In this document: piece by piece, positions 1 through 53,330 of the stretch
Position numbering within the stretch: the stretch's first letter is position 1
Layout of the letters: each line of letters starts with the position of its first letter
From: Cristatella mucedo
Lineage: Eukaryota; Bryozoa; Phylactolaemata; Cristatellidae
NCBI GenBank assembly: GCA_009760855.2
Contig: WPIO01000009.1
Location: forward strand, 897,001-961,000
Direction of reading: 5' to 3'
Length of the DNA: 64,000 nucleotides
Notes under the pieces: generated by a model
Database searches by the model: none
What the model was told of the DNA's origin: nothing
Seen by the model: only the letters and a program-made list of their open reading frames with translations
Program-made: the position numbers and the translations under genes

Positions 1-527
1 TCTGCTCGACCAAAACTATTGTTATAAACAAAGCACGATTCCTAGGCTACAATCGTACGGGCTTAACCTAAGAAGGGGCTGCATATTTGCCGAAGAAACC
101 TACCACTGAGGGCAAGAAGAATCTTCCATCGGCTTAGGGAAGATGAGCTAAAGGGATCCCATCAAACACCTTTCTACGTGCCTCGAGTGAATGTTTTTGA
201 CCTAGGCCTTCGGTTTTGGCGCTCGCACCGTGAACTTAAGGATTTTGGTGCAAAATATCTTTACGTATGCCAGTACTGTCCTTTGATTTTTTTATCACTA
301 CATAAATACAAGTAATATTCACTATGCGGTTTTGTTTTTGACGAATGCTTTGACTAAAGATCACCAACTTGAGTGATTCTACGGTCACGATATTTATTCT
401 TTAAAGAGTCCTGCTTTATAGGTCTCCTGACATCAAAAAACGCATCTTGACATAGCAGTTGAGCACTCGAGTTGACCCACGGATATGTTAGTACAGCAGT
501 CTTAGAACTGAGTTATACGGGTGTTAC

Positions 528-749
528 CATAAGTCATCCACAAGATTTCACTGACTGTGAGACTGCCTCCAAAATCCTCAGTCCAAAGAAAACCTTCTTC
601 GTTGTTGGCAGAGACTTCTTTGCTTGGCGGTCCGTCAACGTAGTGCAAGTCTAGTCTAATAAGTCCGTCGCCTTTAAAAAGTACTCGCCTCAACAGCTCG
701 GAGGTGACCTTATTAAGGCGACAAGATGGCTCTACAAAACACATTGCAG
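528..749 (-). CDS. BIRC6-like gene 2, internal exon (gene runs off left edge)
   Basis: This is the copy A counterpart of the exon at 46941-47162, with the same length (222 nt) and the same splice phases. The minus strand shows an acceptor (GAGCAG) before the exon and a donor (GGTAAC) after it, both conserved between copies. The frame is open and includes the core LLRRVLFKGDGLIRLDLH and the stretch GFLWTEDFGGSLTVSEIL. The next exon would be expected about 840 nt further along the minus strand, which lies beyond position 1. About a quarter to a third of residues differ from the other copy. A hand count gives a replacement-to-silent ratio near one, so this copy may be decaying although it has no stop or frameshift here. 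Confidence 0.7.
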
Positions 750-2029
750 CTGCTCAAAGATCGCCGGCCCCATTGCAATCGACGCCAGCGCTGCGAATCA
801 ACGCAGGTTAAGATTACTGGCGAGGCACAGAATTTATTGAAAGCTGTCATTGATAAACACGGCGAATTTATATGCAACATAAATTATTTCGACATTTTAA
901 AATCAGTGACGAAATTATTCTGCCCATATGAATAATATACTTCAATCTTGTCGTTGATTTCAAACTATGCAGAAACTGGCTCTTATAACTCTAATCGCGT
1001 ACCTGCATTGGCAGCCTAACAGTCAGTGTGTCGATTCCTAGATTGTCACACACTCTTAATTCGCTTCAAACTCTTTCGCCGACCTTCATTTCTGAAATTC
1101 TTCGTACTTTGGCTTCCGATCATACCAATGCTCAAGTATCTGCTGTCGGCCTTTAGTGAACCTCAAATCAATTTGAATCACTGCAGTCATGTAATTTGCT
1201 TCCTTAGCCTGGTATTGACTCCTCACTTCAATTGCGACTGACAATTTAAAAAAAAGAAGCTACAACCCACCTGTTTCTCCAAACCTGTGCACCATCGTTG
1301 AGACTTGCTTTTACTTACGCATGAATGCTGCTTCTTGGCATAGTATCATAAAATAATTGAGGTCGTTCTTTTTCAGGACATTAAGAGTGCTTAGGAAAGA
1401 TTTGGTTTTCTTAAGGTGGTATATAAACAACATATTACTATTAAAAGTACTAATTAATGAGTTTTGCTAGGAAATATTTGTATTCTATAAATCCCGACCC
1501 GGTTAGGTGCTTGAAAAATTAATAATGTCTTGCAAAAATAAATTAGTTCAAAAGATGCAAGGCAATTTTGTTGATCCGCACGCTTACATGATAGAAAACG
1601 TAAATTAGAAATTCGCTAGAAGAACGCATCTAGTGAGTTTCCGATCTAGGCATAAACTAATAAGAAATTAAAAGTGAACGTAAAGCTTAGAAACGAAAAG
1701 AAACGTTAAACTAAAGAAAAAGGTGGTTATATGTTTATAGCTACTTTAATAAAACACGCAGTACACTCAGTAATTTAAAGCACACAAATTCTGGTGACTT
1801 TTAATACCTTGTTTCCCGAAGAATGAGACGTACACCGAAAATAATCCCTAGCATGCCAATCATGCAGTGGGGAATGAAATGTAAAACGCTCTCGTCTCAT
1901 CTCTTTTGCCCAACTTCACCCTCAGATAATTTCACCATTTTCATTGCCACCCTGTCTCGTAAGTCTTCAATTATGATACAATAACACTTGACTAAATTGT
2001 CGATTATAGGGAATAATATTTTGACCCCC
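750..2029. other. Intron or spacer of gene 2, copy A
   Basis: This stretch between the exon at 528-749 and the frame at 3628-4383 aligns with 47163-49170 of copy B with many small indels. Copy B carries roughly 590 extra bases around 48411-48990. Short plus-strand frames at 828-935 and 1028-1245 also have counterparts in copy B and are treated in the findings. No exon with matching splice sites in both copies could be found on the minus strand. Confidence 0.5.
1028..1245 (+). pseudogene. Plus-strand frame, frameshifted counterpart of 47420-47653
   Basis: Read in the plus direction, codons from 1028 give a peptide similar to the open frame of copy B (shared elements SHTL, LSP, SE.LR.LAS and AVGL). 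The frame stops at a TAG near 1160. One extra base at that point relative to copy B (CCTTTAGTG against CCTTATTG) accounts for the break, and the homologous peptide continues in the next frame up to about 1241. No protein family is recognised. The frame could also be a chance open frame preserved only because the DNA is duplicated. Confidence 0.3.
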
Positions 2030-3250: not shown

Positions 3251-3423
3251 TAACCCCCTGGCTTAGTTTACTAATATGTCAGCTAATTATGCCAACAATC
3301 CCACAGGCAGCACATCGTACAGCGAAATACAATCACAATTACAGCAGCGATTATCATTACCCTACTGCCTTTAAACAGCTATGCATTGAAAGGCTTGATT
3401 AGTGACATGCATATCATTGATGT

Positions 3424-3537
3424 AGCACCATAAGAGAGCCTAATCTCTATGCCGGCTCTCCTCACATATTACTAGGCTTGAGCGCATGACCTCTGCCATC
3501 GAAGGCGAATGCACTTAACCGTGTAACCAAACCAGGG
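3424..3537 (-). mobile_element. tRNA-derived SINE (family I), copy A
   Basis: On the minus strand the element starts with a tRNA-like head (CCTGGTTTGGTTACACGGTTAAG, a degenerate A box) and a degenerate B-box region. It continues to the shared tail with the AGAGATTAGGCTCTCTTATGG hairpin part. The orthologous insertion is at 49306-49425, so it was inserted before the segmental duplication. Confidence 0.65.
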
Positions 3538-3627
3538 CGGTGAAGCGAGTCAGTAACGAGAGGTACGGACAAGATTCATCAACATTGACGTATTAATTTT
3601 CTGACGCTCATTCGAAGGCATTCACGA

Positions 3628-4383
3628 CTATGCAGACCTATATGAGTCCTTGTACTGCTTGCGAGCTTTAGAACAAAGTTCCACGCTCACGCAGTCTGGT
3701 AAAGCATCAAACGGGATTTTAGCCATACCAAAATTGACCTCTTCTTGCAGCACCCGATGCATCGCCACCGAGAAAGCTTTCTCATTCTCTTCATGACTTT
3801 CCGTCAGCACCGTGAACAGTGACAACAAGTTTCTCTCCAGTGGGCTAACGTAGTTCTTGAATCGGCGACCTGTCTTGCCATCCATTTTCTCTGCTTCAAA
3901 GCTTATTTCAATGAGCTGTCTCGTCAACTGATTCCATAATGTGGGTCCACCTCCTTCGGAGGAGCCCAACCAATCTTTAACAGCTGTTGAAGTCCAGGCT
4001 GCATTATAGAGTGACTCGGCCAAAGATGCCGCTCGCTCGACAACTGGCTTAATGACGGCTGCATGAGAACAAAGCAGAACGATCAAGCTTTATCAAGCAC
4101 GTTTTTTCGCATTAAGTCAAACGCTTTCAAGAAAGCCATTTAAAAAAATAGACAAATAAATACAATAAAAAATAAAACCACGTAAAAATACCAGAATCGC
4201 GTATCTCCTCAATGAATCCGTTCTTTAAATAGCACTAATATATGAATTTCTGCATATGTACTTACTAGGAGCACTTTCTCCCTTGATCTGACCGGTTTTC
4301 TCTAGAAAATAAGTTCTCAGTGTCATGCACTGGTCTTGCAACGATCGCAGATTCTCCTTCGATGTTTCGAGACTCGGCTCCAT
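3628..4383 (-). CDS. Unrecognised two-exon frame, copy A (182 aa), join 4383-4266, 4058-3628
   Basis: The minus strand has an ATG at 4383-4381 with an in-frame TGA just upstream, then 118 nt ending in CCTA before a strong donor (GTAAGTAC). The second exon follows a good acceptor (TTCTCATGCAG) and runs to a TAG at 3628. Joined, they encode 182 residues, helix-rich and hydrophilic, with no signal peptide or membrane segment. I recognise no domain. Copy B has identical exon lengths and nine differences in the 142 residues of exon 2; its stop is TAA instead of TAG, so termination is kept despite a change in the stop codon. It lies just upstream of BIRC6-like exons on the same strand in both copies, so it may be the 5' end of that gene, with the last codons being intron read-through, or an independent gene. 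A donor candidate inside exon 2 (TGC|GTGAGC) would support the first reading. Confidence 0.6.
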
Positions 4384-36500: not shown

Positions 36501-39500
36501 CGCCCCTGCCAGTTCCTGTGTCTTATATAGGAAACGGAGTAGCTAGACAGGGCAAGTGTTCCTGTATTCTCTTGGTCTAGTATTGCTTTCTAATTTAGTG
36601 ACTGCAGACTGCCTATTTGATAGATCTGGGACAAGACCGGAGTTTAAAAACATATTTAGTATGCTAGTAATAATTTAGCATGTGCAATCAGGCGCTTATA
36701 GCTGGTGCAAAACTCTACAGCTAGGCTTGTATAGCTGATTAAACAGCCTCTTTTTGTATAGTGACAGAAAAGCCTTTACTGCTGTTACCACCGCTTGCAG
36801 TGGCGATAAAGAATCGCCCACCGAAGGAATCGAACCCACGATCTCGGAACCGAGGTAGTGAAAGCAACCGCCTTACCTAGTGTGCCATCACGGCTCACCG
36901 TCTGTCGAGAGCTTCTCAGTTGCCACATCATGCCACTTCTCGCCGACCTGCACTGACTACCAGTCAAGCAACGGATCGACTTCAAAGGTTTTTCGCTCAC
37001 TTTTAGGTCACTTCATTATTTGGTTCTAGCCTATCTCTCAGATCTACTCCCATTATGCCAAGCATCGTACCACCCGCTTTTCTGAATCCTAGAGTTTACC
37101 AATACCTTATTCAAACCTCAAATCCTTTGGAGACCGTGCATTTAGTTCGTATGCTCCCAAAGCATAGTACTCACTCATGACTTGAGTCACAACATCACCT
37201 GACTTGACCAAATTAAAAAAGAACTTCAAAACACACCTATCTAGCAAAGTTTTTAGTGGGTCCCCGAGATTCATCCATCATTATGCCTGCTGACACTGCA
37301 TGCTGCCACTAACCACGTTTGCATGCTGACCCTGTGCATGTCACCCCTAACCATGTTATTTATGTTGTTTAACAAGCATGATATTACTCACCATTCAATC
37401 GTGTTTCCCTTTGCAGCAAATGTAAATCGCCTAGAAGAGACTGATGGGGCTTTATCAAGTGCATTAATATTATTATTATTATTATTATGGCTATTATTAG
37501 TCATGCATCAAAGCAGCAGGTCCATGCATGGTAAAAGGAGAATGGATGGAATTATGGTCACGAGGGCTATTGTTTTCTTTAACTGAGAGATAAATTTTAG
37601 GATGAAGACATTTGTAGCAGCACTTAATGTTGACGTTGATATCTTTGATCTGGCAACTTAAAAGGAATCATGATCGCAGTTTATGTATTGCTTAGGCAGT
37701 AAGACCTAAGGTAGACGATGGAAACTCAAGAAGGTCTGGATATTCGCTAAAACCAAGCTCAAAATAGAGATCACCTAGAGCTACCTGAGATTTTTACAAA
37801 GTCAGCATTCCTAATCTGGTCAGCTAGACATTCAGCTGTACTATCCCTGTCAAGTTTAGGCCTACTGCCGACGTAAATTACACAGTAAGCTATTGGTTTG
37901 ACATTTACGATTAGCTTCTCGGTCACTGATTTCTCAAGTAGCGAATGTGACAAACAAGCAGTGGACAATAAGCAAAGAGACACAGCTCGACTGGACGCAG
38001 CTGCGTCAACCAGGTCACGGGTTTTCGCTTCTACTACCGGGGCTCGGTGCTAGAACAAAAAATCTAATGCCGGCGATAAAGTGAAGATGGCTAAAAGTGG
38101 CTCGTAGTAAGTTCTGAGGACATTGCTTGTAACGTAGAGCCATTACTACTTGAAATCGCCTGTACCGAGTTATTAAATTGCCCGACCTAACAAGTAGCAA
38201 ACAAGCCAATTCAAGATGCCATACAGGGTAATTATAAATAAATAAATAAATATACATAGTTCATTTGCATAGTGCCCTAAGAGAACTTAATTTCTATTTA
38301 GCCACTTAACTTATGCCACGGGCTCGAGCCCACTACCACGGCCACCCCTAGGTGTGGCTGAGCACCTTAACCACTGGGCCAAACCAGCGCTAGTACATCC
38401 AAGAGAACTCAGCAGTGCAATGGGCAGCAGCTTGAAAAGGCAACATTGCCAGCGTACCTGCAGAAGCGTAGATTGAGCATTCCATTTCTCCTCAGGTCTT
38501 CCACTCCATGTATTCAGTATAGAGAGGCACACCTAAATACATGCATTTGTTTGTAAACAAACGTGGTCACTGACAACAAGTCAGCTCAGATAAATTCCAG
38601 AATATGACTGCATCATCGAGACTCACTCTCGTTCCACATGAAATGGTGACGAACTCATATTAACTTACCTTGCCGTCTGCATACAAGTTTGGGTTAAAAC
38701 GAGTTGTCCCTCCGCCGGTTGTCAGCAGGTGAAACAAGGGCGGGCTGAGAGGATAATCTGCAGGTAGCATAATGTCAAATTCAAAGCATCCGTAAGCATA
38801 CGGTGTGCCCACCGGTCCTGTGATGAGAGCCTACAAGCGTTCAAAACAGTCTTGAGGGTCACTCCACAAATTTAGGTAATTGGAAAATGTAAAATAAAGT
38901 CAAGGATTAATGTGCAAAAGCAGATGACTAATAGAAGAAGGCTCCGCGAAAGAGCTTAAGTCGCATATTCGTATGGCAGCCCCAGAGTGTTGCTGCAGCT
39001 GTTATTTGCCTCTTTCCAAAGAGCAAACTCTTTAGAGCACCAGATGTCCAGTGACACTTTCTGGATGGCTATCAGGCTTACAAGGAAGGCGTCAGGATTG
39101 GAGGAGCGCTCTAGATCCAAGTCGAACAACGCGTGCAGTTCTTTGGAAATTGCTCCAGCGGGTCGTTTTCCCTGTTCGGATGCAGTGCGTGCATCTTTAT
39201 TAAACGGTCAAGCAAGGCCTGCCAGACAGCATCTGCCGTGCACAGCTAAAGGAAGGAGCGGCCGGCGTCATGGCAGTCAATGGCAAAGGAGAAGGCAGTA
39301 GGAGTTGTGAAAGCCGGCCTGTCACTACGATAGAAGTCACACCGGTCGGCCTGTCGAGGCTGCCACTGCACAGGGCAGCCTGGTCAAAATGTTCGGTACC
39401 ACAGTTGTCAGGCTCTGCCTGACCCCCAGCAGCAGTGGCTCGGGGCATCAGTCTGGCCGAGAGCCAATACTTGTGGTGCGATGCAGGTATTTCTATCCTT

Positions 39501-42500
39501 GTAGCTGCCCTGGTGCTGGCGAATACAAGGACTTGCACAGTGCCTCTGCCACAGAGGAGAGCTCGGGGGCCACCGGAGCTTGACCCTGGCCACGAAAGGT
39601 TCCGGCTGCACCCAACATAGCTCGACCTCCATCTGACGCCAGGCTTGGAGGCTCGGAAGTACCGGGATTACCTTGTTCGGCAGAGCCCCAACGTAAAGCA
39701 CAAGTCCAAGATTTCCAGCGAACCTACTACTGATGCTCTGGCCATGGATAAAGTTTAATGTCACACCCTCTAAGTGAGTGCCTGAAATCACTGCCTAAAA
39801 TCACTTCCAAATGAGGTTACCGCCATGCGCTTTGGCAAGCAGGCAGGCTGTGAATATTAACACTTGCCTTGACAACCTCCCGCCGTCTGGCAGGAGGTGA
39901 GAATAGTACTTAAACTGCCATACTGCGTCAATTTTCATCATAACTGTGGATGTGTGTTCGGAGTACAAAAGTCAGCCTTGTGTCTGGACAAACTGCATAT
40001 GAGGCCACTATCTGCTTACCAGGAGCTACAAGAAGGCTACATAAGCTCAGTATGTGTACTTCCACCCCATGTGCAATAAGTGAGGCCTCACCGGCCGTCG
40101 TGCTCGGCATTTCAGAGCTCCCCAGCTATTGGTCAGGGCAGCAGGCAGCAACTCCTGGCTGTCCAAGCTGATTTAGCGAGACCTGCAGCACTCAGCAGTA
40201 CCGGCCCTTCCACCAGCAAGCCAGCCATTTGCCCAGGGCCACACACCACTTGCAGACAGAGTTCTACTCGACTTTGATTTTAAGTTCCCTGTCAACTTCC
40301 TCTCACCCCAGCAGATGTCTTTGATCTGCCGGGCTCCAAGGGCCCCGAAGAAATTCCCTCACTACCAATGCCTCAAAGAGGTATGGCCCTGCGACCGGAT
40401 GTCCCTTGCTGCTCCCCCTACAAGCCATGAAGACCTGTCCAAGCCACCCACTGAACCAAATGGAACAAATACCGAGTCGATCAGCATCAGAGCTCTGCTT
40501 CCAATGTCTATAGCTCGGCCGTGGTTTGACTTTCATAACAGGCGAACTGCTCAGCTGGTTCCCGGGGAACAAAGGCTGCCTCACAGACAAAAGCCATCAG
40601 CGAAGCAAGCGAACTGCTCTTCGAGTGTATCACGTCTCAGATACGATGACCGAATCCAAGGCTGCATAGCATGCTTGGTTCTTCCACTCAGGCGAGAGTC
40701 GCCCCTGAGACTCCTGCCATAAGGAGAAACCCGACTGTTGCGTATGTAATAAAATATGTTCATTCTTGATCCATCAATTTTAACTGGCTAAAAGCGTTGA
40801 GGGTAATGAACACACGGAGTTTAACCAGGAGCCTGGATTTATTTGATAGGCACTCCACCGGTACTCCAGAATTACTGAAGCCGTTCTTGTTAACATTTTC
40901 ACAAAGACAAGCATCCAGCTGTATTTGTGCAACTTGGTTTGCTCGAGCGTTAGTTTGGCCAAGGCTTAGACATGACCTACCTTTAGCACGTCCATCCTCT
41001 GATTATCGGTGCACACAAATATGCTAGTCCTCGAGTCTATAGGCAGTGACTTTGAAAGAGTGAGCACTTCCTGGGCGATTCGTCGCGTTCGTGCCGGTGT
41101 GTGGCTTCCAGTTGCCTTGAACCCTGCCGAAGCAGCGTCGAAATGACTAAATACGACGCGTTCGACACGTGTATAGTCACCTTCCGAAAAGTCGCAGGAG
41201 CCTGGAAAGTAAAAGGCTGGTTGATAGTATACGAAAGTAGTGTCCATTTATTTGCGTCTATACACAGCGGTACTGCACAGTCTCTATGGAGGCACCCATT
41301 GGAAAGTAAAAGGCTCGTTGATGGTATACGAAATAAGTCTCATGCCAATACATACGAAATCTGTGTGGCATCATGGCCTGCACGTAGGTGGTATCGGCAT
41401 CCTCCTTTTTTCGTCCGTCTGCGAGAGGAAGATGGTTCGGATATCTCTCGGCAATTGTAGCAGCACTGGCATCCAAGTCTGGAATACCTTGAGTATGACT
41501 GATTTCATCGAGAAGTCTTTCAATAGTGAAAAATTTATTGTCACAGTCAGATTTTTCAGAAGCGTGACCACCGCCACTGCTGTTGAAAAAGAAAAGGCGT
41601 TAGTGGCATCATTCTCCCCTTAATTCCAGCTAAGGCGAAATTCCAGTAAAATATTAGCCCAAGCAGTCGGACAAGCATTGTGAAGCAAGTCACCCGCACG
41701 TAACCAAAGCCACCTAAGTAAACCTTGGAGTTACTTTTCAGCCAATTTAAATCATAGCGTGGCCAAAAGTGTTAAGGAATGCGGACGGTGATGTACAGAT
41801 TTTCTAGCGCCTTAGCGTTCAGTTCAAGCTGCAAATGCCAAACTTTACGTTCCCGGCCAACTACAATAGATTTTTTACCAACTCAGAAGGTGGGGCTTCT
41901 AAGTGCTGCCGAATGCACTTCCAAGCTTATGAAAGTGACTGGTTGAGATTGAACGCAATTTTAAGGGAGTTAGAAGCTGCTTTAACCAGACAATCGGTCG
42001 CTTCTCTTGTTTCTAGAGCTTCACGTGCAATAAATTCCACGTATTCATTCACTGTGACAATATGTATCAAATGTCCTAAACAATACAGGTCGATAATAAT
42101 AATAATATACTTGATAAAGCACCCTCAGTGAACTCAATATGATAGGTAGGCGGGAGCCAAAGAATGAAGGAACCTAAAAGTGAGCGACGAAACCTTGAAG
42201 TCGATCTTTTTTTGACTGGTAGCCAGTGCAGGTTGGCAAGAAGTGGTGTGATGTTGCAACTGCGACCACAAACAAGCATAGCTGCAGAGTATTGCACCAG
42301 CTGTAAGCACTTGATTGCACACACCGGTAGATCAGCAAGCAGTTAGTTACAAAAGCCAAGAGGGGATGACAAGCAAATTCATGGATCAACTAAGATGTGG
42401 TATCCCTATCTAAGCAAGCCCGAATTTTAGCAATGTTATGTAGCTGAAAGTCGACAAATTTGATTTTGGAGCCAGTGCGGTCGTCTAACAAAGGGTCACT

Positions 42501-44222
42501 TTGGAACATGACACCTAGATTTTGTGCAGTTTCAACGGGAGATACGCTGGCATAGCCGATTTTGACCATTAATCTTACCAATTTCTGAATCACACTTGGT
42601 TTGCACATAACTACTAAGTTGGTTTTATAGTTATTCAATTTAAGAACATTTGCTGCCATCCATGTGTGGATGTCATCAATACATGCAGCAAGGTACTTGA
42701 GAGAATTCGACGTGCTCGATGGCTGGGAGGGATCAAAGCAAAGGTACGACTGAGTGCGCATTGAAGTGAAAGCTTAGATTGTGCTTCACAATCACATTGG
42801 CAAGAGGGAGAGTATAAGCCGTGAAAAGAACCGGACCAATCATGGAGCCCTGACGGATCCCATACTTCGGAGGTACCTCGGATGATCTATCACCGTTCAC
42901 ATAAATACTCTGGAGTCTTCCATTGACATAGGACCTGAATCATTTCAGAGCAGTGCCAGTGAGGCCCAGGGGAGTTGAGAGGCGGTCGAGAAGGATCTGG
43001 CGATCGATAGTATCAAAATCTGCAGACAGATCGATCAAAACAAGCAGACTCTACTCATGCCTCCATTCCTAAGCAGGTCGTTGTACACTCGAAACAATGC
43101 TGACTCTATAGAGTACTTAGCTCTAAAGCCAGACTGGAACTTACTAGCAAGGTTACTAGTTTCAATATTTGAACTATCAATGAAACGTAATAACTGTACT
43201 TGATCACAAACCTACGTTTAGCTGCAAAAATTGTAAAATAACTATAAGCTCTAAAATATCTTAGTTTTTCTAGACAAAGCATAACAAGTCTACTATTTGA
43301 AAATATCAGCTTACCCTATTAGACGGTAATACTCCGTCATCAGGTCGTGCATTCCCTTAATGACGGTACCGATTGAGCGGCCGTTTCTTGATATACGCCC
43401 GATCACGAGGTCTCTAACGAACATTTCGAAGGTGTTGTCGTGAAGAAATCGACCCACGCTGTCGTGGATCGAGCGCAGAAGGCGTAGTGACGCCACACGT
43501 GTCTGAGCATCCATGTCGAAGTCACAGAGTGAATCATTGCTCAGCTGCTCAAACATGAAGTCAGTAAGGCAAGAGCGTAGTGAATCCAACAGCAGAGCTG
43601 AGCTCATCGCATTTCCACTAGCACACAGCTCCTGTTGTCCTCGAGCAGCTGGCAACTCCTTCCTCGCTACCTTTACAGAAAAACGAGAATTCGTACCAGG
43701 ATTTACGAACCCTCGAAAGAGCTCAATGAGCCTGGAGAGTCGTCGCTGCATGACTTTCTTCTTCTGGACTACTACACTCAAATCCCATGCTGAGACCGTG
43801 GAGCCGCTACCGTAGCCCACTCCACCATCGGCCTTAGGAACTTCACTGTGTATGTGTGAAACAGGATTAAGGAAAAGTGCAACTTCCAGCCCTGCCAGAT
43901 TCTGAGCCTGAACTTCTTGCTTCTCTTCGTTGGGCAGGTTAATCGCCGTCTCGAGAAGAAATGCAATTATCTGAAACACGAGTGTGAGTTATTACTGAAC
44001 ACACCAAATTAGTGGCTTAAGCAAATGAACTTCGATGAACGGACTTCCACAATGAGGACCATAAAAGGCCAAACAGAGTGGAAGTGGCACAATAACATTC
44101 AATGAGGAAGCCACGGATTCCCTTGGCCATACATTATCGATAACGTTTTAACAGTAAAAAAAACATATTCTCAGTACTCTGACCCATTCAACGCATTCTC
44201 CTATCTCATGTATACATGAAAT

Positions 44223-44315
<93 letters not shown>

Positions 44316-47162
44316 CATACGCCAATGGTTCTCATCTTTTAGCTTTTAACTACCACAGCTACTTATTATGCCGGGCAAACAATCATCTCTGTGATAGGCA
44401 ATTAGTGGTCCGAGCTCTTCTATAAACTAATTTTAGTGCGTGCGGGTATATTTCTCTACCAATATCTCTAACCAACATGCTTCACCTCTCATTCATGAGT
44501 CAATTGAGAAGCAGCTTTGATTGGGATCAGGCAGATGTCCTGACAAAATTATTAGAAGTGACTCAATATTACCTCTCGAGCGTATGCATGCTGAGGGGCA
44601 AGCGGTACGCTGAGCGGACGATCTGTCGTAGCTGAGAGGCATGCAAGAACGGCTGGCAGAATGCCGACGCTGGTCAGTTGCCCAAGCACCTGCTTGGCGC
44701 CATGCTGCTCCCAAGGGCACGAGTCGAGCAGCTCTTGCAAGACGTCCAGCGGCAGCTCCAGTAGAGTCCGCAGAGAATTGGACTCTTGAGTTAATGAGCA
44801 GGGGACTGAACTACCTGCAAATAGATACCACGTAATAGCTCAATCTTAAACGGGCCGACTAGCTTAGACTAATAGCAGCTCAGTAAATTCCAACTTTGGT
44901 AGTGATAAATTAGTGCTACGTACGGCTAGGTTCGTTCCGTAGGCTTTTTCGAGTGCAGTACCGAATCGCAAAACAGACCCACGGTAAAAGTCTATCCCAC
45001 AGTCGTGCCAGGGCTGAGTTATAGCCAGGAACCTCCGACATTAAACCGAGAGCTGACAACACGCACGGTAAGAAGGCCGCAGCGTGCTTCTGACAATCTT
45101 CGGCAGTTTTAGGCATTCCAAAGGACAAAGAAAGTCCGTTCAGAGCTGTGCCTGCTAGGGCAATGTCGCTCAGGGACTCAAAATCTGTAAAAAAAAATAC
45201 ATAACAAAAAACATTAACTATCTATGACGTATCAGTGAGTGTTCAAAGGTTTTCCTCAATAATCCAATAAAAAATCAAAGCATAGATATAAAGTACAAAG
45301 CTTACCGGAGCATTGCAATGTTACCGATGACGGTCTATGAAGTAGATTAAAAATTCCATCTAAAAGTCTTATATGCAGCTGCACGGCATCCCGCAGCTTC
45401 CGTTGATTCATGTCTTCGTTGCTGTCATAATAGGCGGCAACTTCATCCATATTTACATTTTGTTCGTTTCGATCATTGGTAAGATTCTGCAGGCACATCT
45501 TTGTAAGCAAATCCATCCCCTTTAGAGCTACAGAGCATTGACACGAATGCAATAATAGTGCTCACGCACTCCTGCCAGGATTTGGAGTTTAAAGTGACTG
45601 GTGAAAGCAAAATTCGAGCTGTTACTCACAAATAAAATGTTGCACTGCATGCGAGAGTGGAAAGATTTGGCTGACTGGGTGTGCAGTTGTAACACCAACT
45701 TTTGTCTCCTTCGTGTCCACAGCTGATTTGGTGTGCGAGAACCGAGACGGAACCAAGGCTGTAGGTGACATGGGCTTTTTCCAAAAGTAAAAAGCTACAG
45801 CGGGCTGCAATTCTTCATCGAGTCGGCAAGCTTGGTTTTCCACTGCCGCCTGTTGGAGCTTGTTCAGAGTTGTGTTGAAGTCATGCACGATACCTATCGA
45901 GTATTTAACGTACAAAAGTAACAAATCTTCTTCCTGATTGCAAACACAGCCAATTGCAAAGCAAAGTTATACGCAGATACCTGTGCCTATTGAGAAGGCT
46001 CCAAAGTACTTTGATGCCTCTTCGCATTCGCTGGTGCTCGCTCGCTTCTCGAACCGTTGCTTCTTCCGTAAGTTGCCACCGTCACTTTGGTCAGATTCTA
46101 CCATAGAACAAGATAAAAATCGCGTTGTCCACTAATTTCTTCCAGGAAGGACGATCACTACAAGGCCTTGCGTATCAAGAGAATTCCCAAAGCAGTCTGG
46201 CAAGATGACTTAATGACCTACGATGCTTTCAGACAGCCACTTTGAGGTCAACAATGGCTCAGTGATATCAATTTAAATTAAATGAATATTCCTGTTTTCA
46301 TAACTACTAGCAATTCTTGAAACTGAAACTTTTGCAAGATCCGGCTTATGACTATTATAAAAGCAAATAATGTGGGAAATAGCATAGATCACAGAAGCAT
46401 CCATGTGCACAAGATTTCAACTCTGTTCGTGCAAAATTATTTAAAAAACCGACATGATCCCGAAGTTACTACCTTAGGGCTCAACCTAAGAAGGGGTTGC
46501 ACATTGGCCGCAGAAACATACCACTGAGAGTAAGAATAATTTTCCGTCGGCTTAGGGAAGAGGAGCTAAAGGAATCCCATCAGACACCTTTCTACGTGAC
46601 TCCAGTGATTTTTTTTTTTTACCTAGGCCGTGGGAGCACGAGCCTTGAACTCTGAAGTTCGGGTGCAAAATGGCCCCTCGTTTGCTAGTACTTGCTTTGA
46701 TGATTTTACAGCTGCATATATGCAAGTAATAGACGCTTTGCAGTTGGTTCTTAAACGAATGCTTTAACCACAGACCAGCCACCCAGAGTGATTCTACCGT
46801 CTCGATATCTATCCTTTGAAGCGCCCTGCTTTACAGGTTGCCTAACATCAAGAAACGCACCTTGATATAGCATCACAATACTAGAGATGACTCGTGGGTG
46901 TTGGCATGGCAGTCCTAGAACTGAGTTATATGAGCGTTACCCTTTATCATTCTTAGGATTTCGGCGACTGTGAGACTGCCATCAAAATCCTTAGTCCAAA
47001 GAAAACCTCTTTTGTCATTGGCCGAGACTCCTTGGCTTGGCGGTTCGTCGACGCGGTGCAAGTCTAGTCTAATAAAGCCGTCGCCCTTAAAGAGTAGTCG
47101 CCTCATCAGCTCGGAGGTGACATTTTTAAGGCGTCCAGAGGGCTCTACAACACACGTTGCAG
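27530..47162 (-). CDS. BIRC6: BIRC6-like gene 1 (C-terminal E2 part), 14 exons
   Basis: The join on the minus strand is 47162-46941, 46097-45981, 45926-45630, 45527-45306, 45184-44924, 44814-44573, 43970-43315, 41579-41356, 41201-40981, 38830-38669, 38532-38458, 32372-32184, 28955-28866, 27583-27530. The exons sum to 3,032 nt, all junction phases agree, and there is no stop before 27530. The product segment is about 1,009 residues. The last ~285 residues match the BIRC6/BRUCE chimeric E2 domain. BIRC6 is a giant membrane-associated IAP that acts as an E2/E3 ubiquitin ligase on apoptosis and autophagy proteins. The upstream ~700 residues are alpha-helical and fit the region that precedes UBC in that family. 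No BIR domain lies in the window; it could be upstream of 64000 or lost. The link to the frame at 49522-50281 is uncertain. Most introns are short (54-850 nt), but the introns that split the UBC domain and those just before it hold LINEs and other insertions. Confidence 0.85.
28866..28955 (-). CDS. BIRC6: BIRC6-like gene 1, exon with C-terminal UBC helix
   Basis: The acceptor is GTTTTAG and the donor AAG|GTGGGA. The 30 codons [13 protein letters not shown]...[12 protein letters not shown] match the helix that follows the UBC core in BIRC6 (VIHKHF pattern). If the donor were not used, the frame would stay open to a TAA at 28770 and give a different tail. Confidence 0.85.
28960..32180. other. 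Intron of gene 1 with an unrecognised frame
   Basis: This intron separates two UBC exons. A minus frame at 30216-29869, open upstream to 30252, encodes a Trp- and hydrophobic-rich segment ([20 protein letters not shown] and [17 protein letters not shown]) that I cannot assign. A short plus fragment at 31020-31115 encodes [20 protein letters not shown], a LINE reverse transcriptase motif. The rest, including AT-rich DNA around 30860-30980 and 31180-32180, shows nothing recognisable. Confidence 0.5.
32184..32372 (-). CDS. BIRC6: BIRC6-like gene 1, UBC exon (QSL and EPYFNEPG)
   Basis: The acceptor is TTTTCCAG and the donor GAC|GTGAGT. The 63 codons start [20 protein letters not shown], a signature of the BIRC6 E2 domain after the catalytic cysteine, and end GGSLAFKD. 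Confidence 0.95.
32490..32640 (-). mobile_element. LINE family 1 3' end fragment
   Basis: The terminal hairpin region (CATCCTCAGAGAACTTAATCC) and an adjacent short piece of the 3' untranslated region lie on the minus strand, next to a second, longer copy. Confidence 0.6.
32641..33900 (-). mobile_element. LINE family 1 fragment
   Basis: The minus strand shows the 3' hairpin (GCACCCTCAGAGAACTCAATTTC), the TGCAAATCGCC/GTCAGCATGCG untranslated repeats, and a degraded reverse transcriptase C-terminus around 33850-33600 ([17 protein letters not shown]). It lies in the UBC intron of gene 1. Confidence 0.75.
34040..35960 (+). mobile_element. LINE family 2 copy with long reverse transcriptase frame
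   Basis: The 519-codon frame 34347-35906 is the longest in the window. It begins inside the finger domain ([20 protein letters not shown]) and carries [88 protein letters not shown] and [14 protein letters not shown] frame change near 34230 separates it from 34054-34236. The catalytic YADD is YADN, so the enzyme should be inactive. No endonuclease is present, so the copy is 5' truncated. The 3' end is GTGGAGTTACTGACGGAG followed by an (ATTAC)n tail to about 35962. It sits in the intron after the catalytic-cysteine exon of gene 1. Confidence 0.93.
36105..36500 (-). mobile_element. LINE reverse transcriptase fragment
   Basis: The minus frame 36336-36112 begins [20 protein letters not shown] and continues [14 protein letters not shown], matching FDTIDxQxLLDRL...LxWFxSYxxxRxQ of L2/CR1-like enzymes. 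The related stretch of family 1 is at 42890-43010. Confidence 0.75.
36675..37495 (+). mobile_element. LINE family 1 fragment interrupted by a SINE
   Basis: Family 1 sequence runs to 36731 (GCAATCAGGCGCTTATAGCTGGTGC), is broken by a minus-strand SINE (36732-36897), and resumes with CGTCTGTCGAGAGC...CCACATCATGCCACTTCTCGCC. It continues through the 3' untranslated repeats to a (TTA)n tail near 37490. Confidence 0.85.
36732..36897 (-). mobile_element. tRNA-derived SINE (family II), best-preserved copy
   Basis: The minus strand starts TGAGCCGTGATGGCACACTAGG (A box GGCACACTAGGTAAGG) and has a perfect B box GTGGGTTCGATTCC. The body GGTGGGCGATTCTTTATCGCCACTGC follows, and the copy ends CAAAAAGAGGCTGTTTAATC. 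It is inserted in a LINE, inside an intron of gene 1. Confidence 0.85.
37500..38225. other. Intron sequence, nothing recognised
   Basis: Between the LINE tail and the next SINE; only short frames. Confidence 0.4.
38226..38390 (-). mobile_element. tRNA-derived SINE (family I), well preserved
   Basis: The minus strand reads CTGGTTTGGCCCAGTGGTTAAG (A box), a B-box region GTGGGCTCGAGCCC and a tail AAATAGAAATTAAGTTCTCTTAGGGCACTATGCAAATGA, ending in (ATTT)n. It lies 68 bases after the catalytic-cysteine exon. Confidence 0.88.
38458..38532 (-). CDS. BIRC6: BIRC6-like gene 1, exon with catalytic cysteine
   Basis: The acceptor is TATTTAG and the donor CAG|GTACGC. The 25 codons begin [17 protein letters not shown]; the cysteine (codon at 38529-38527) is the thioester-forming residue. 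SILNTW and RPEEKW are diagnostic for BIRC6/UBE2O-type E2 domains. Confidence 0.97.
38669..38830 (-). CDS. BIRC6: BIRC6-like gene 1, UBC exon (NPN motif)
   Basis: The acceptor is CGCTTGTAG and the donor AAG|GTAAGT. The 54 codons include [33 protein letters not shown] and [11 protein letters not shown]. The family has NPN where most E2 enzymes have HPN. Confidence 0.97.
38950..40760. other. GC-rich unclassified block in the gene 1 intron
   Basis: About 1.8 kb that is clearly GC-richer than its surroundings, located between the exons at 38669-38830 and 40981-41201. Frames overlap on both strands (for example 39408-39791 minus and 40315-40722 plus), with Pro-, Ser- and Arg-rich translations. None shows a family motif that I can name. 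The sharp composition change suggests an inserted element, perhaps LTR-retrotransposon gag, or a processed sequence. Confidence 0.4.
40981..41201 (-). CDS. BIRC6: BIRC6-like gene 1, exon at start of UBC domain
   Basis: The acceptor is ACTTTCCAG and the donor AAG|GTAGGT. It encodes [20 protein letters not shown] and [15 protein letters not shown], matching the RxxRLAQE..TLSxSLP...VFVRxDxxRxDxxK segment that opens the BIRC6 E2 region. The upstream intron contains a duplicated copy of its own 3' splice site (see findings). Confidence 0.93.
41356..41579 (-). CDS. BIRC6: BIRC6-like gene 1, exon before UBC
   Basis: The acceptor is TTTTTCAACAG and the donor TTTC|GTATGT. Codons include [20 protein letters not shown] and [12 protein letters not shown], the latter matching the YVQAMKPLQF segment of BIRC6. 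If the donor is ignored the frame stays open about 35 codons more into the intron. Confidence 0.85.
42080..43215 (-). mobile_element. LINE family 1 copy, reverse transcriptase to 3' end
   Basis: The minus strand carries, from 43215 to 42080, [20 protein letters not shown], a frameshifted LQI.TIDRQ region, [20 protein letters not shown] and [20 protein letters not shown]. Then come [36 protein letters not shown] and a shortened 3' end with hairpin part and (TTA)n tail. Several frame breaks are present. It lies in the intron between the exons at 43315-43970 and 41356-41579. Confidence 0.88.
43315..43970 (-). CDS. BIRC6: BIRC6-like gene 1, large exon (218 codons)
   Basis: The acceptor is TCGTGTTTCAG and the donor AGG|GTAAGC. 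The sequence is helix-rich and contains [17 protein letters not shown] and [20 protein letters not shown]. Its position and character match the helical region that precedes the E2 domain in BIRC6, but the motif match is weaker than for the UBC exons. Confidence 0.85.
44227..44311. repeat. (CT)n microsatellite
   Basis: An uninterrupted CT tract of about 42 units in the intron between exons 43315-43970 and 44573-44814 of gene 1. Confidence 0.98.
44573..44814 (-). CDS. BIRC6: BIRC6-like gene 1, exon
   Basis: The acceptor is TCTATTTGCAG and the donor GAG|GTAATA. Codons include [20 protein letters not shown] and [20 protein letters not shown], a repeat-like helical pattern. It ends in phase 0 and fits the next exon. 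Confidence 0.85.
44924..45184 (-). CDS. BIRC6: BIRC6-like gene 1, exon
   Basis: The acceptor is TTTTTTTTACAG and the donor AGCC|GTACGT. It encodes [20 protein letters not shown] and [20 protein letters not shown]. Phases match both neighbours. Confidence 0.85.
45306..45527 (-). CDS. BIRC6: BIRC6-like gene 1, exon
   Basis: The acceptor is CTCTGTAG and the donor TCCG|GTAAGC. It encodes [18 protein letters not shown], an acidic linker ([16 protein letters not shown]) and [20 protein letters not shown]. Confidence 0.85.
45630..45926 (-). CDS. BIRC6: BIRC6-like gene 1, exon with tandem acceptor
   Basis: The donor is ATTT|GTGAGT. The acceptor lies in CAGGAAGAAG: the second and third AG both keep the frame and differ by one codon (exon end 45929 or 45926). 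It encodes [17 protein letters not shown], then [20 protein letters not shown] and VAFYFWKK, a well-ordered conserved-looking stretch. Confidence 0.85.
45981..46097 (-). CDS. BIRC6: BIRC6-like gene 1, exon
   Basis: The acceptor is TTCTATGGTAG and the donor ACAG|GTATCT. The 38 full codons are rich in Lys, Arg and Glu ([20 protein letters not shown]) and end YFGAFSIGT. The downstream intron is only about 54 nt. Confidence 0.8.
46941..47162 (-). CDS. BIRC6: BIRC6-like gene 1, exon (copy B of 528-749)
   Basis: The acceptor is CTTTAAGCAG and the donor AAGG|GTAACG. Codons give [34 protein letters not shown] and [18 protein letters not shown]. The 3' phase fits the exon at 45981-46097. The 5' phase needs one base from an upstream exon that I could not find, so one exon between 47200 and 49520 may be missing from this model. 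Confidence 0.75.
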
Positions 47163-47419
47163 CTGCTTAAAGATCGCCGGCCCGTATGCATCGTGTAAAT
47201 AATCGATGCCACCAAATCGAATCAGCCCAGGTTAAGATCACTACTGAGGCACAGAATTTATCGAAAGCTGCCATTGATAAACACGGTGAATTTGTATGCG
47301 GCATAAATTATTTAGACATTGCGAGATCAGTGACAAATTTGTTGTGTCAATATTTATAATCTATTTTAGTATGGTTATTGATTTTAAACAATGCAGAAAC
47401 TGGCTCGTTAAAACACTAA

Positions 47420-47653: not shown

Positions 47654-47779
47654 CATCGCGACTGACAACATTAGAAAAGGAGTTGAAATTCACTTGTTTT
47701 TCCAAACCGCACCATCGTTGAGACTTGCTTTTTCACGCGCATGAATGCTGCTTTTTTGCACTGTATCCTAAACTAATTG

Positions 47780-47950: not shown

Positions 47951-49305
47951 TGATTTTCTCTTTAAATTATATAAACATGTTACTATTTATAATAATAATA
48001 AATGAACTATATTACGAAATATTCGTATTATATAAATCTCCAACCGGTCCGGTGCTTGAAAATAATTAATAGCTTGCAAGAATACACTCATTCAAAAGAT
48101 GCAAAGCAATTACGTCAATCAGCACGCTTACATAATGGAGAAAGTTTAAATTAAAAATTATCTTGGGAAAAGCATCTAGTAGGTTTCCTAGCTACGCGTC
48201 AAATAAACTAGCAAAAAATAAAACCGCACAAAAAGCTTAGAAACGAGAAGAAATTTGCAACTAAAGAAATAAAGGGTTTATGTTTATAGCTGCTTCATTA
48301 AAACATGCAGTACACTCAGTAATTTTAAGCACCAAAATTCTGGTGAATTTCAATACTGTTTCCCGTTGAATGAGACCTACACCAAAAATATACCCCAGCA
48401 TGTCAACTATGCACCCGAAATTAAAATCTATCGGCAGCTTCTCCGTGCAACGTAGCAGCCGCTGCGGCAGACTTTGGACAGTGCAGACACGAAAAACCTA
48501 GCGGCCGAGAAAAGGTTGGAAGCAGCCGAGGCGCATACAGCGGGATCCGAATAAGACACAAGTAGTGGTAATTATTTTTGTTTAACCAAATGCTGATAAG
48601 ATTAAATCAAACGATTTCTGCGAAATTATTGTAGTTTTAGGGGGCAAATGGTGCTATGCATTTCGTGAGTGCGACACAAGGAGAATCCGTTCCCTACATA
48701 ATATAGTGCCGTGCATTGCGGTACGTACGCTCGCACGTGTGGGCATATTCGGTACTCTCTGGGGACAATATATGCAGTATATTTGGTCGAGGGCACATAT
48801 AATGTGAATGTATGCCCCACATACCGCAATAGGTGATGTGCATTTAGAGATACCATTTTGTGTGTTGGCGAATGTTCTTTTTGGGGAGAGAAGGCAATCA
48901 AAAGTTTTGCTGGAGAAATTGGCGATTTCTACGTTGGTTACACCTCGGACAAAATTGGGCAAACGAAACGAATCCCACTGTTTCTTCTCATCCCATCCCG
49001 TATTACTTTATCTTTTATTCATCTCGCTCACATCCTATCTTTTCCCCAACTTCACCCCCTAATAAATGTCATCGGTTTTGGTGCCACCATTCTCTCGAAA
49101 GTATTTAATTATGGGGACGCTATAACATATATATATTCTTTAACCCCAGACTTAGCTAATATTGTGAGCTTCGTATGCCAAAAATCCCATAGGCAGCACA
49201 ACGTACAGTGAAATACAATCACAATTACAGCAATGATTATCATCACCCCACTGCCTTTCACCAGCTATAGATTGAAAGCGTTAATAAGTGACATGCATAT
49301 CATTG

Positions 49306-49425
49306 ATATTGCGCCATGAGAGAACTTAATCTCTATGCTAGCTCTCCTCACATATTACTAGGCTAGAGCTCACGACCTCTGCCATCGAAGGCGAATGCAC
49401 TTAAACGTGCAACCAAACCAGGGCG
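49306..49425 (-). mobile_element. tRNA-derived SINE (family I), copy B
   Basis: Ortholog of the insertion at 3424-3537, with the same flanks and breakpoints. Confidence 0.65.
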
Positions 49426-49521
49426 TCGAAGCGAGTCAGTAAACGACAAAACGTCAGTACGGACAAGATTCATCAACATTGACGTATTAATTTTCTGACG
49501 CTCATTCGAAGGCATTCACGA

Positions 49522-50281
49522 TTATGCAGACCTATATGAGTCCTTGTACTGCTTGCGAGCTTTAGAACAAAGTTCCATGCTCACGCAGTCTGGTAAAGCA
49601 TCAAACAGGATTTTAGCCATACCAAAATTGACCTCTTCTTGCAGCACTTGATGCATCGCCACCGAGAAAGCTTTCTCATTCTCTTCATGACTTGCCGTCA
49701 GCACCGTGAACAGTGACAACAAGTTTCTCTCCAGTGGGCTAACGTAAGTCTTGAATCGGCGACCTGTCTTGCCATCCATTTTCTCTGCTTCAAAGCTTAT
49801 TTCTATGAGCTGTCTCGTCAACTGATTCCATAATGTGGGTCCACCTCCTTCGGAGGAGCCCAACCAATCTTTAACAGTGGTTGAAGTCCAGGCTGCCTTA
49901 CAGAGTGACTCGGCCAAAGATGCCGCTCGCTCGGCAACTGGCTTAATGACGGCTGCATGAGAACAAAGCAAAATGACCAAGCTTTATCGCGAACATTGAC
50001 TCACCATTAAGTCAAACGCTTTCAAGAAAGCCATTTAAAAAAAATAAACAAATAAATGCAATATGCAATAAAAACCGCGAAAGAAATACCAGAATCGCGT
50101 ATCTCCTCAATGAATCCGCTCCCTAAATAGCACTATTATATGAATTTCTGCATATATACTTACTAGGAGCACTTTTTCCCTTGATCTGACCGGTTTTCTC
50201 TAGAAAATAAGTTCTCAGTGTCATGCACTGGTCTTGCAGCGACCGCAGATTCTCCTTCAACGTTTCGAGACTCGGCTCCAT
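49522..50281 (-). CDS. Unrecognised two-exon frame, copy B (182 aa), join 50281-50164, 49952-49522
   Basis: Minus-strand ATG at 50281-50279 with an upstream in-frame TGA. Exon 1 (118 nt) has donor CCTA|GTAAGT; exon 2 has acceptor TTCTCATGCAG and ends in TAA at 49522. The product is 182 residues with the segments LKENLRSLQDQCMTLRTYF, GPTLWNQLTRQLIEISFEAE, SPLERNLLSLFTVLT and HEENEKAFSVAMH, which look like amphipathic helices. No domain is recognised. It may be the amino end of BIRC6-like gene 1 or a separate gene; the missing connection to the exon at 46941-47162 leaves this open. Confidence 0.6.
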
Positions 50282-53200
50282 TCTTCACCACTTACAAAAC
50301 CAATTGCACCTAAAGCCAAAAGTATCAAGTTATTGAAAGCAGCTGATTAACTTGTATCTAAGTTAAGACAGATTCAAAAACGGCTTCAATTGTTGTTGTC
50401 TTATAGCACTTATAATCTTTATTTCCTTACAGTGAACACGTGTCGTGTAGGATATGCAGCGTGCCGGATAGGCAGCGCGAAGGCATCCAAAAATGATAAA
50501 AAACCGGCTTAATTAATAATTACGGGCAAATCTAGCCTTAGTAGAACTAACCAACCAAAATATTTCATTTAAAAATAGGTAAAGCGCCTAAAAAGAAACT
50601 TGACACTTGGAGTGTCGCACAAGTGTTCTTATACTTGTATTCTTGTCATATTTCTTTATTTACAAGTTAGTTTATTCTTTTCGTATTTCTTACTACTATT
50701 CTTGTCATTCTTAGTCACGTAACTATCACTTTCATAACGACGCTCGCATTCCTTAGCAGATTTTAGGCAAGAAAGGGCACGCAGTAAACAAAATATGCAG
50801 CCACAGGGATTTTGAGTATAAAAAGATACAAAGCCGTTCTATATTCTGCATTTGAGTATAACGCGATTCTGTATTCTGCTACGTACGGATTGGCTATCAC
50901 TCTCCAATATGGAAAACCAAGGCTTGGGTAAGGTTAGCCAAACGCCTATTTACTACGCTATTTTAATGCCTACTAGCGACAGGTGTTATTTTGTGGGGCT
51001 GGCAGCAAAGTAGCCAAACGTCTGTGTCCAGGTCAGATTCGTACTCAGTCTAGGTGACTCACCTGTGTTTGCAAGGCTACTTACCTAGAAATAGAAGGAC
51101 TAGATTGGAGAGCTGATAATCTTCAGAGAAAGGTTTTTTCAAACAGCAAGCAAATTTTCTTCTACGGTTTACCTGAGACATTTCGGCTACACCTGATTTA
51201 TGATGCTATTGGCAAGGTGTGGAATGCAGATAAACCGGCACTCATAAGATGAAAAAGTGGCTGTAAACGTACCTTTAATAGTAGGGCTAAAGTCAGAGCG
51301 CAAAACTACATTTTTTTTAAATAAATCCGAAATGCATCATTTACAGAACTAACATAAAGCTCACGCATTAGTTTGAATGAAGAATGAGATCGGAATAATC
51401 CTGAAATCCCACACTATAAGACTAAAAAAAAGAATAAAGAAATATCTTTGAGCAAAGTGGGAGCAAGCAAAAGACTATACAGTCGGTTCCGAAAACCGGA
51501 GCTACGGTTGGTTCCCGGTTATTTATAAACCACCTATCTAATGCTATAGCTCCTTATTTCCTTGCCCTACACATGCTGACGCAGATGTGCTGGCATTGCC
51601 TCACAAACCGAAAGTGACTATTATTCGGCAGGTATACTACCGTTAAGGATAATGCATTGATAGTTAACTGCTACCCGGGTCTCGGAAAGTAAGGCCTCCA
51701 TTATCACCGTACCGATTGTATCCTGAGACTATTGATAAGGTCCTTGCATAGGCCATTTGTGCCAGCTGAACCCACTGAATAGAGTGGTTTCTGTAGCCGC
51801 TCAGCGGCGTGGTGACTCCAATTGAACTAGTTCACTTAGAAACACTCTGCAATTGATTTTTCAATTACATTCAAGAGAGTTTTAGATACTTTGAAGTTAT
51901 TATTTAGGCAATTCGTAGCTTGAGATTTAAATCCACAAACGCTGGTCAGACGCCGGGATTTCAGTCTTTCTGTATGACTGGAAAAGCATTCCAGCTATCG
52001 TGGATGTGTTCTGTCAATGCTGCATAAGGGTCTTTTAAGGTGACCTATTCCAAAGATAGTAGCTGAATTAACAGCCTCTTTTGTATGGCAACATAATAGT
52101 CTGTACGGCTATCACCAGCACTTGCAGCGGCAATAAAGGATCGCCCACCAAAGGAATTGAACCCACGATCTCTAGAAGATATGTATTTATCTATTTATTG
52201 AATGGTTTTTGCGATTCATAACTCTGCATAACCCTGTCCTATTTTACAGCTTGCAGTTCAGAGTTTCTCACCAAGACACCGATCGAGTCGGATGCTAGCC
52301 CTCAGTACGTTGCTTATGTCATATTTCTGATAATAGTGGTCTGATCAACTTGAAATTTGGAATGCATTCGTAATCTCAGTGGGGTTTTACGTCAAGTAAG
52401 TATAGCACCAATGTCCTTGACTTTCACATAATGTATTTAGGCTGATTAGGTAAGAAAAATGTTTATATTTTTATATGTCTTCTTAGTTGCGAAAAGGTGT
52501 CCTGCATCTTTTGAATTGTTTAGAATATTTTTACACTGCATGGCAAAATATCTAATATTGTTAGTCTGGCTTATTAGCCTAGACTTTTACAGGTAATCAG
52601 AAGGTCAACACAGCTTATGTTACCCTTGTTGTTTGTGCGTATTTGCATGCCAATCATTCCATCGGCATTTGAGAAATATCAATAAATGTGCTGCAACAGA
52701 GATAGAACCCACAGTTGTGGTAGCTACTAACCTTGCCAGCTTCCAACTCCCAACTTTGCCAGCCCCTAAGCCGATTGTATTTCCCCTAATTAATTGGCAT
52801 TTCATGTATCATTTAAGTGTAATACAAATAAGAGTTAACCATGTATACAGTTTCAGGTAAGACACTCTTAATAAGTAAACGATCATTGGAAGCTCCTTAC
52901 TTTCTATAGAAGGCGAACCGACTGATGCAGAAGATGAGCCATTTTTAATAAATGGACGACCGTGCAGTTTTTCCTAAATTGGTCAAAGTCTTTAAGAAAG
53001 ACAGAAGTTCAAAGCATTCTAATTTATATTTAGATTCATTTGATGAGAAAAATTACCAATCTATTTTGAATGCGCAATGTAGTGTTTAATTAAGGTTATG
53101 AGTGTTCACACGGTAGCTAAATATGCAGATCGGTAAATTGTCTTCCCTAATATTGTATTAATAGTTATCCTAGCTGTACATTAGATATAAAAATGGGTAC

Positions 53201-53330
53201 GCCGCTATCGAAAGAGATGAGGGGTTTGTGTTAATGAATTTACTCGCATTCACATTTTTAAAGGCTAGATGTCCTTTGAAGCTCCATCAACTATGTCAGC
53301 ATTGGGGCTCTTTGAGCTATAGTGGCCGAA
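50282..53330. other. Upstream region of gene 1, copy B
   Basis: Aligns in a diverged way with 4384-7250. It contains only short, unconserved frames and the SINE at 52062-52176. Promoter elements cannot be picked out. Confidence 0.4.
52062..52176 (-). mobile_element. tRNA-derived SINE (family II), truncated
   Basis: The minus strand shows the B-box part GTGGGTTCAATTCC, the body TTGGTGGGCGATCCTTTATTGCC and the 3' end CAAAAGAGGCTGTTAATTCAGC. The A-box head is missing. Confidence 0.75.

What the first reader, a model, noticed from the sequence alone, without database searches (positions are those of the whole stretch)
1..53330. Head-to-tail tandem duplication of a BIRC6-like locus
About 1-7250 and 46420-53330 are homologous in the same orientation, and each carries the same minus-strand exons with identical lengths and splice phases (431, 118 and 222 nt). 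Between them lies a complete set of BIRC6-like 3' exons. The left copy should therefore begin a second gene whose UBC exons lie left of the window. BIRC6 is usually a single large gene in animals, so a tandem array of C-terminal-type copies would be unusual.
Basis: partly seen in the sequence, partly recalled or inferred. Interest (0 to 1): 0.75.

Follow-up and report, generated by a model that had tools for sequence, protein, structure and literature searches.

The report
Truncated BIRC6 gene copies in tandem
In this invertebrate genome the giant cell-death regulator gene BIRC6 is followed by shortened tandem copies that keep the ubiquitin-transferring end but lack the domain that binds cell-death proteins, so the two jobs of one giant protein may have been partly separated.

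Summary
Window 1-7.3 kb and 46.4-53.4 kb are patchy same-orientation homologues. The predicted second UBC exon set, with VCLSILNTW, lies 6.6-7.0 kb left of the window.

The array is larger. Minus strand, 5' to 3':
- E (~1,104 kb): BIR-bearing, BIRC6-N-terminal-like.
- D (~1,060-977 kb): full-length-type BIRC6.
- C (window 50.3-28.8 kb) and B (901-879 kb): BIR-less 3'-end copies.
- A (~854-841 kb): broken fragment.

C and B give open 12-exon GT-AG models (961 and 958 aa). A first model sharing C's exons 8-14 aligns with human BIRC6 4278-4778 (E 2.5e-87). C and D share intron phases, and synonymous sites are saturated. B and C differ by 16-24% in most introns, with 91-99% tracts suggesting gene conversion. 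Neutral simulation indicates weak purifying selection.

Best reading: old partial tandem duplication of BIRC6 made BIR-less E2-type proteins. Expression and function are untested. New variant of a known kind.

The parts
50164..50281 (-). Gene C exon 1 (118 nt), ATG with A at -3 and G at +4, in-frame TGA two codons upstream; no match in D
   Evidence: B-C dN/dS 0.17 on only 5 differences
49623..49952 (-). Gene C exon 2 (330 nt, phase 1-1), homologous to exon D-a of gene D; its 3' end was chosen to match D's donor
   Evidence: No BIRC6 match of its own in the PDB; D-a matches human BIRC6 ~3700-3827 only weakly (E 0.009-0.07)
46941..47165 (-). Optional exon 4 of C (225 or 222 nt, phase 1-1); open in B and C but no more conserved than introns
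45306..45527 (-). Gene C exon 5 (222 nt); no counterpart identified in D
44924..45184 (-). Gene C exon 6; same donor phase as D, different acceptor phase
44573..44814 (-). Gene C exon 7; 33% identical to D exon 7 over 70 aa (its alignment to human BIRC6 is not significant alone)
43315..43970 (-). Gene C exon 8, matches human BIRC6 ~4275-4405 (E 3.1e-8 alone)
41356..41579 (-). Gene C exon 9
40981..41201 (-). Gene C exon 10, start of the UBC region
38669..38830 (-). Gene C exon 11, UBC core (RFNPNLY)
38458..38532 (-). Gene C exon 12, UBC exon with the conserved cysteine of GKV|CLSILNTW (Cys codon 38529-38527; its catalytic role in E2 enzymes is recalled)
32184..32372 (-). Gene C exon 13, end of UBC
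28770..28955 (-). Gene C exon 14, last exon with stop
4266..4383 (-). Gene B exon 1 (118 nt)
3729..4058 (-). Gene B exon 2 (330 nt). Exons 5-14 of B lie left of the window at C687:896058-878636
528..752 (-). Gene B counterpart of optional exon 4
49114..50370 (.). High-identity B-C tract over exons 1-2 (91% overall, exons 96-97%)
44560..46050 (.). High-identity B-C tract over exons 5-7 and part of the intron before them
38440..41260 (.). High-identity B-C tracts over exons 10-12, introns included (mostly 89-100% per 100 nt, dip to 80-84% near 39.4-39.7 kb)

Best explanation
This is a tandem array made by old partial duplication of a BIRC6 gene. Shown by sequence: a full-length-type BIRC6 (D) is followed downstream, on the same strand, by copies C and B. 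Each keeps only a 3' part of the gene ending in the UBC domain and begins with an ATG exon that has no match in D; a third 3' fragment (A) is broken. B and C lie in homologous blocks spaced about 45 kb apart and carry near-identical tracts, best explained by gene conversion. Inferred: C and B are expressed as proteins of about 105 kDa (from their length) that load ubiquitin through the conserved cysteine but lack the BIR and most of the scaffold by which BIRC6 dimerises. They would act as free, differently targeted E2-type enzymes, or as competitors that modulate BIRC6.
For: Array and coordinates. Gene models with GT-AG and consistent phases in both copies. Human BIRC6 4278-4778 at E 2.5e-87, and BIRC6 UBC chains ahead of UBE2O (1.2e-78 against 4.4e-40); Pfam UQ_con 1.3e-24, (both run with the first, 1,093-aa, 14-exon model, which shares exons 8-14 with the final one). 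D is BIRC6: BIR frame to residues 303-379 (1.7e-31); weak collinear anchors at 3301-3449 (E 0.042) and ~3700-3827 (E 0.009-0.07); its exon 8 finds 18 proteins, four of them named BIRC6. C-D: equal phases at both ends of exons 2 and 7-13; length differences divisible by 3 in 8 of 9 internal exons compared (7 of 8 without exon 2, whose end was chosen by D; exon 6 fails); pS 0.82 and dN 0.42 in exons 10-13. B-C: 220 substitutions in the first 2,700 nt would give 7.4 stops under neutrality, none seen (5 of 5,000 simulations with none); 129 amino-acid changes against a mean of 151 (3 of 5,000 as low). Gaps before exon 14 are three of 3 nt, while 120 of 146 indel events outside exons are not multiples of 3. 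Exon 1 peptide matches only C and B in 797-1061 kb. Tracts. BIRC6 dimerisation is by the armadillo domain with CBM32 and coiled-coil insertions (PMC10827748, passages); that most of this lies outside the retained part is my inference.
Against: No transcript or protein evidence. B-C dN/dS over the 14-exon first model is 0.59, exons 8-9 are no better conserved than introns, and exon 13 has 12.5 replacement against 1.5 silent changes. Gene conversion can keep frames open without selection on each copy, and the simulation ignores it. Exon 5 and the acceptor of exon 6 have no clear counterpart in D; C's exon 2 has no BIRC6 match in the PDB. B's last exon has an earlier stop and gaps of 4 and 1 nt against C; in the blast count the exon class has 3 indel events, 2 of them not multiples of 3, which I place in exon 14. 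Of 659 candidates for C's exon 8 none scored E<=0.001, so no independent relative shows that the copy is kept elsewhere.
Confidence: 0.7

Rival explanations
1. C and B are decaying pseudogenes whose frames look intact only because of gene conversion and limited time.
Against: C is saturated against D at synonymous sites yet has a whole open 12-exon model with D's phases and UBC residues; no stops where 7.4 are expected, and fewer amino-acid changes than all but 3 of 5,000 simulations.
Confidence: 0.17
2. The C and B exon sets are alternative 3' cassettes of the D gene: BIRC6 transcripts could splice from the exon before D-a into exon 2 of C or B, giving a BIRC6 with exchangeable C-terminal ends.
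For: Exon D-a and exon 2 of C and B start in the same phase, so the junction would be in frame; all copies are on one strand, downstream of D.
Against: C and B share an ATG exon with an in-frame stop just upstream, odd for internal cassettes; it would need D's own end to be skipped and introns of roughly 50-95 kb. The exon before D-a was not modelled.
Confidence: 0.06
3. Assembly artefact: haplotypes or mis-joined repeats shown as tandem copies.
For: The tracts of 97-99% identity look like what uncollapsed haplotypes would show. Read depth was not available.
Against: 16-24% divergence in most introns, different insertions in each copy, one copy broken, and C-D saturated at synonymous sites.
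Confidence: 0.03

Closest known systems
BIRC6 (BRUCE/Apollon), full-length
   Same: C-terminal region and UBC domain, exon phases shared with D, conserved cysteine and flanking residues
   Different: No BIR, about 960 aa instead of 4,859 (human chain 8atm), own start exon. The LIR1 core, FLQV in mouse (PMC10827748, passages) and in D, is LLQV in C and B: the aromatic residue is lost
UBE2O and UBE2Z (E2s with related UBC domains)
   Same: BIR-less E2s with a related UBC domain (BIR-less is recalled)
   Different: The UBC of C scores far better against BIRC6 UBC chains (1.2e-78) than against UBE2O (4.4e-40) or UBE2Z (9e-34)
NOTCH2NL and other incomplete segmental duplicates
   Same: Truncated paralogues from incomplete duplication of a large gene (PMC11956922, preprint, abstract start seen in a listing)
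   Different: NOTCH2NL is N-terminus-like; here C and B keep the C-terminal enzyme end
Tandem IAP expansions of bivalves
   Same: IAP genes expanded by tandem duplication, with domain shuffling (PMC7831173 and PMC8917759, passages); 54 BIR matches in this genome
   Different: The oyster paper calls BIRC6-like proteins highly related between molluscan species; the passages seen mention no BIRC6 3'-end array

Membership tests
BIRC6 (for gene D) | BIRC6-type BIR near the N terminus | tested here: met
   Frame 1059968-1060402 to BIRC6 303-379, E 1.7e-31; best-scoring BIR match of the genome
BIRC6 (for gene D) | C-terminal BIRC6-type UBC in the same gene | tested here: inconclusive
   UBC exons at 979.45-978.57 kb lie 3' of the BIR on the same strand with weak collinear anchors between and one tested frame without match; one continuous transcript was not shown
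BIRC6 (for genes C and B) | BIR domain | tested here: not met
   54 listed BIR matches, none on C687 at 797-979 kb
BIRC6 (for genes C and B) | BIRC6-type UBC domain with the conserved Cys | tested here: met
BIRC6 (for genes C and B) | Full scaffold of about 4,860 aa | tested here: not met
   Open models of 961 and 958 aa; significant human match only at 4278-4778
BIRC6 Pfam domain PF12356 | PF12356 match | tested here: inconclusive
   No match in this genome, but none in the 14 control genomes either
Active E2 enzyme (C, B) | Ubiquitin thioester formation | not testable with these tools
   Needs protein
UBE2O | UBC closest to UBE2O | tested here: not met
   BIRC6 UBC chains score higher

The most novel reading that the evidence does not exclude
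The locus holds a 'split BIRC6' set around one intact gene: E keeps the BIR (substrate-binding) end, C and B keep the ubiquitin-transferring end, and D keeps both. The half-proteins could work in trans, with each other or with D, as adjustable modules of one giant enzyme. That E lacks a UBC rests on no listed UBC match on C687 between 979 kb and 8.4 Mb; about 11 kb between D and E and everything above 1,105.4 kb were not read, and E's further exons are unknown.
Probability: 0.12. Interest if true: 0.75.

Novelty: new variant of a known kind. Interest (0 to 1): 0.5.

Why it matters
BIRC6 unites substrate binding, a dimer scaffold and ubiquitin transfer in one essential giant protein. A lineage with BIR-less UBC copies beside an intact gene would be a natural experiment on whether the C-terminal end works alone, on UBC targeting without a BIR, and on how truncated copies affect the full protein. 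It would also add a case where gene conversion seems to homogenise the enzyme end of partial duplicates.

Tried and rejected
The C exon 8 peptide had 659 candidates and no hit at E<=0.001. A tree of the exon 7-9 region (D with exons 7-8 only) put B/C and D on very long branches, so it cannot date the duplication. PF12356 was uninformative. My first 14-exon model had an exon 3 (47645-47566) and a 421-nt exon 2; both were dropped because B has a frame-breaking gap and no donor at exon 3, and D shows the earlier donor for exon 2. The Pfam, PDB and dN/dS runs used that first model and were not repeated with the final one. A candidate exon at 45.6-46.0 kb was not kept: its upstream phase does not fit and it lies inside a conversion-like tract. 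A second E frame (1090839-1091879) had no PDB match and only weak similarity to D. Structure prediction was not tried: the spliced protein is not encoded letter for letter in one stretch, which the tool requires. Papers: seven answered searches (listings partly capped); no listed title describes a BIRC6 3'-end array, which does not prove absence in print. PMC12052993 was looked at by passages only and gave nothing usable.
Full report
Place and host. The window is C687:897001-961000 of a 572-Mb, 688-contig assembly. The COX1 gene of its 21-kb mitochondrial contig, read with the invertebrate code (my choice), has as best hit an unnamed entry at 96%; the other named entries among the 120 shown (of 7,999 scored) are 81-85% identical, mostly gastropods, cephalopods and chitons, with nemerteans, one annelid and some insects lower down. 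I infer a lophotrochozoan, mollusc-like, not identified further.

Observation. Self-comparison confirms patchy same-orientation homology between the left end and 46.4-53.4 kb.

The array. tblastn of window exons over 797-1061 kb, joined from fetched stretches, finds UBC exons at about 979, 935 (window), 890 and 850 kb. Blast between blocks shows B (876-901 kb) and C (924-947 kb) as copies spaced 43-47 kb apart that include 3' flank. In the whole genome C's exon 2 matches C, B and D only (3 matches among 4 scored candidates).

Gene D is the full-length-type BIRC6. A BIR open frame at 1,059,968-1,060,402 matches human BIRC6 303-379 (E 1.7e-31) and holds the genome's best-scoring BIR match. Weak but collinear anchors follow at 1,001 kb (3301-3449, E 0.042) and 996 kb (3723-3827, E 0.009); one tested frame at ~991 kb had no match. 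D's exon 8 finds 18 proteins at E<=0.001, three named BIRC6 by JGI and one by NCBI. UBC and tail exons lie at 979.5-977.2 kb. That all this is one transcript is inferred.

Genes C and B. Twelve exons with GT-AG sites and consistent phases give 961 and 958 aa. The first, 14-exon model of C (1,093 aa, same exons 8-14) aligns to human BIRC6 4278-4778 (E 2.5e-87); a second piece at 4138-4264 scores only 1.9 bits and is not significant alone. Pfam gives UQ_con. C and D share phases at both ends of exons 2 and 7-13. Ten exons were compared in length: exon 14 ends a gene in C but not in D and should not count; of the other nine, eight differ by multiples of 3, one of them (exon 2) with an end chosen by D; exon 6 is the exception. 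In exons 10-13 pS is 0.82 (saturated) and dN 0.42. The cysteine of GKVCLSILNTW is kept in C, B and D; broken A has it in a changed context. Its catalytic role is recalled.

Selection. In the first 2,700 nt, neutral simulation expects 7.4 stops and the sequence has none (5 of 5,000 simulations have none); 129 amino-acid changes are as low as in only 3 of 5,000. Exons 8-9 alone: 4.0 stops expected, 84 of 5,000 with none. The simulation ignores conversion, which would weaken it.

Gene conversion. B-C identity is about 76-84% in most introns and 80-83% in exons 8-9, but 91-99% over exons 1-2, 5-7 and 10-12, introns included in the last. Selection on codons does not explain 94-99% identity over about 800 nt of intron; conversion or a recent partial exchange does.

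Copy A. Only exons 9-14 gave convincing matches, exon 14 weakly; the UBC exon is split by about 0.8 kb with a TTA-rich end, and exon 13 has a stop: a pseudogene fragment.

Copy E. A second BIR on this contig lies at 1,103,722-1,103,886; its open frame is 28.9% identical to D over 263 aa, beyond the BIR itself. In the PDB it scores NAIP (5.7e-19) above BIRC6 (3.3e-12), so by that measure its BIR is not specifically BIRC6's; the extended match to D is the main argument. No further convincing E exon was found in 1073-1102 kb; about 1,061.8-1,073.0 kb was not read.

Mechanism. BIRC6 dimerises by its armadillo domain with CBM32 and coiled-coil insertions, and BIR and UBC are placed near a central cavity (PMC10827748, passages); UBA6-BIRC6 ubiquitinates LC3 (PMC6863627, title and abstract start). 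C and B keep only the C-terminal part. I infer a ubiquitin-loading but untethered E2-type enzyme, or a modulator of BIRC6 or of its E1 supply. The aromatic residue of the LIR1 core is lost in C and B but kept in D (motif). None of this is tested.

Origin. A tandem duplication that starts inside a gene and ends beyond its 3' end leaves an intact gene plus a 3' copy; one that starts upstream and ends inside leaves a 5' copy plus an intact gene. These two ordinary events could give C and E; further duplication gave B and A. The order is inferred; the tree could not date it.

Verdict. Partial tandem duplicates are a known kind of event; a BIR-less UBC series beside an intact BIRC6 was not among the titles listed by my seven answered paper searches.

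Noticed in passing
C687:1103527-1104294 (L035), outside the window: A BIR-bearing open frame similar to the N-terminal part of BIRC6 gene D lies ~43 kb upstream of D's BIR, with no listed UBC match between it and D's UBC.
   Followed up: partly
Whole genome G000: 54 BIR matches at E<=0.001 (a lower bound), many clustered on contigs C222, C365, C122, C331 and C67: a large IAP expansion.
   Followed up: no
G000:C33:7123601-7137477: Four UBC exon matches spaced ~4.6 kb apart on one strand: probably a tandem array of another E2 gene.
   Followed up: no
window 17295-17921, 19627-19890, 54659-55204, 56491-57252: Reverse-transcriptase fragments (Pfam RVT_1 for the first two, the second just under the curated cut-off) and repeated LINE-like stretches, judged by repeats and reading frames only.
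   Followed up: partly
window 59806-60016: Tandem repeat with a period of 22 bp, CTCTGTCGCAGGCCACTGCCGA.
   Followed up: no
G000:C166, C83, C549, C299: COX1-like stretches outside the mitochondrial contig, probably nuclear copies or stray mitochondrial contigs.
   Followed up: no
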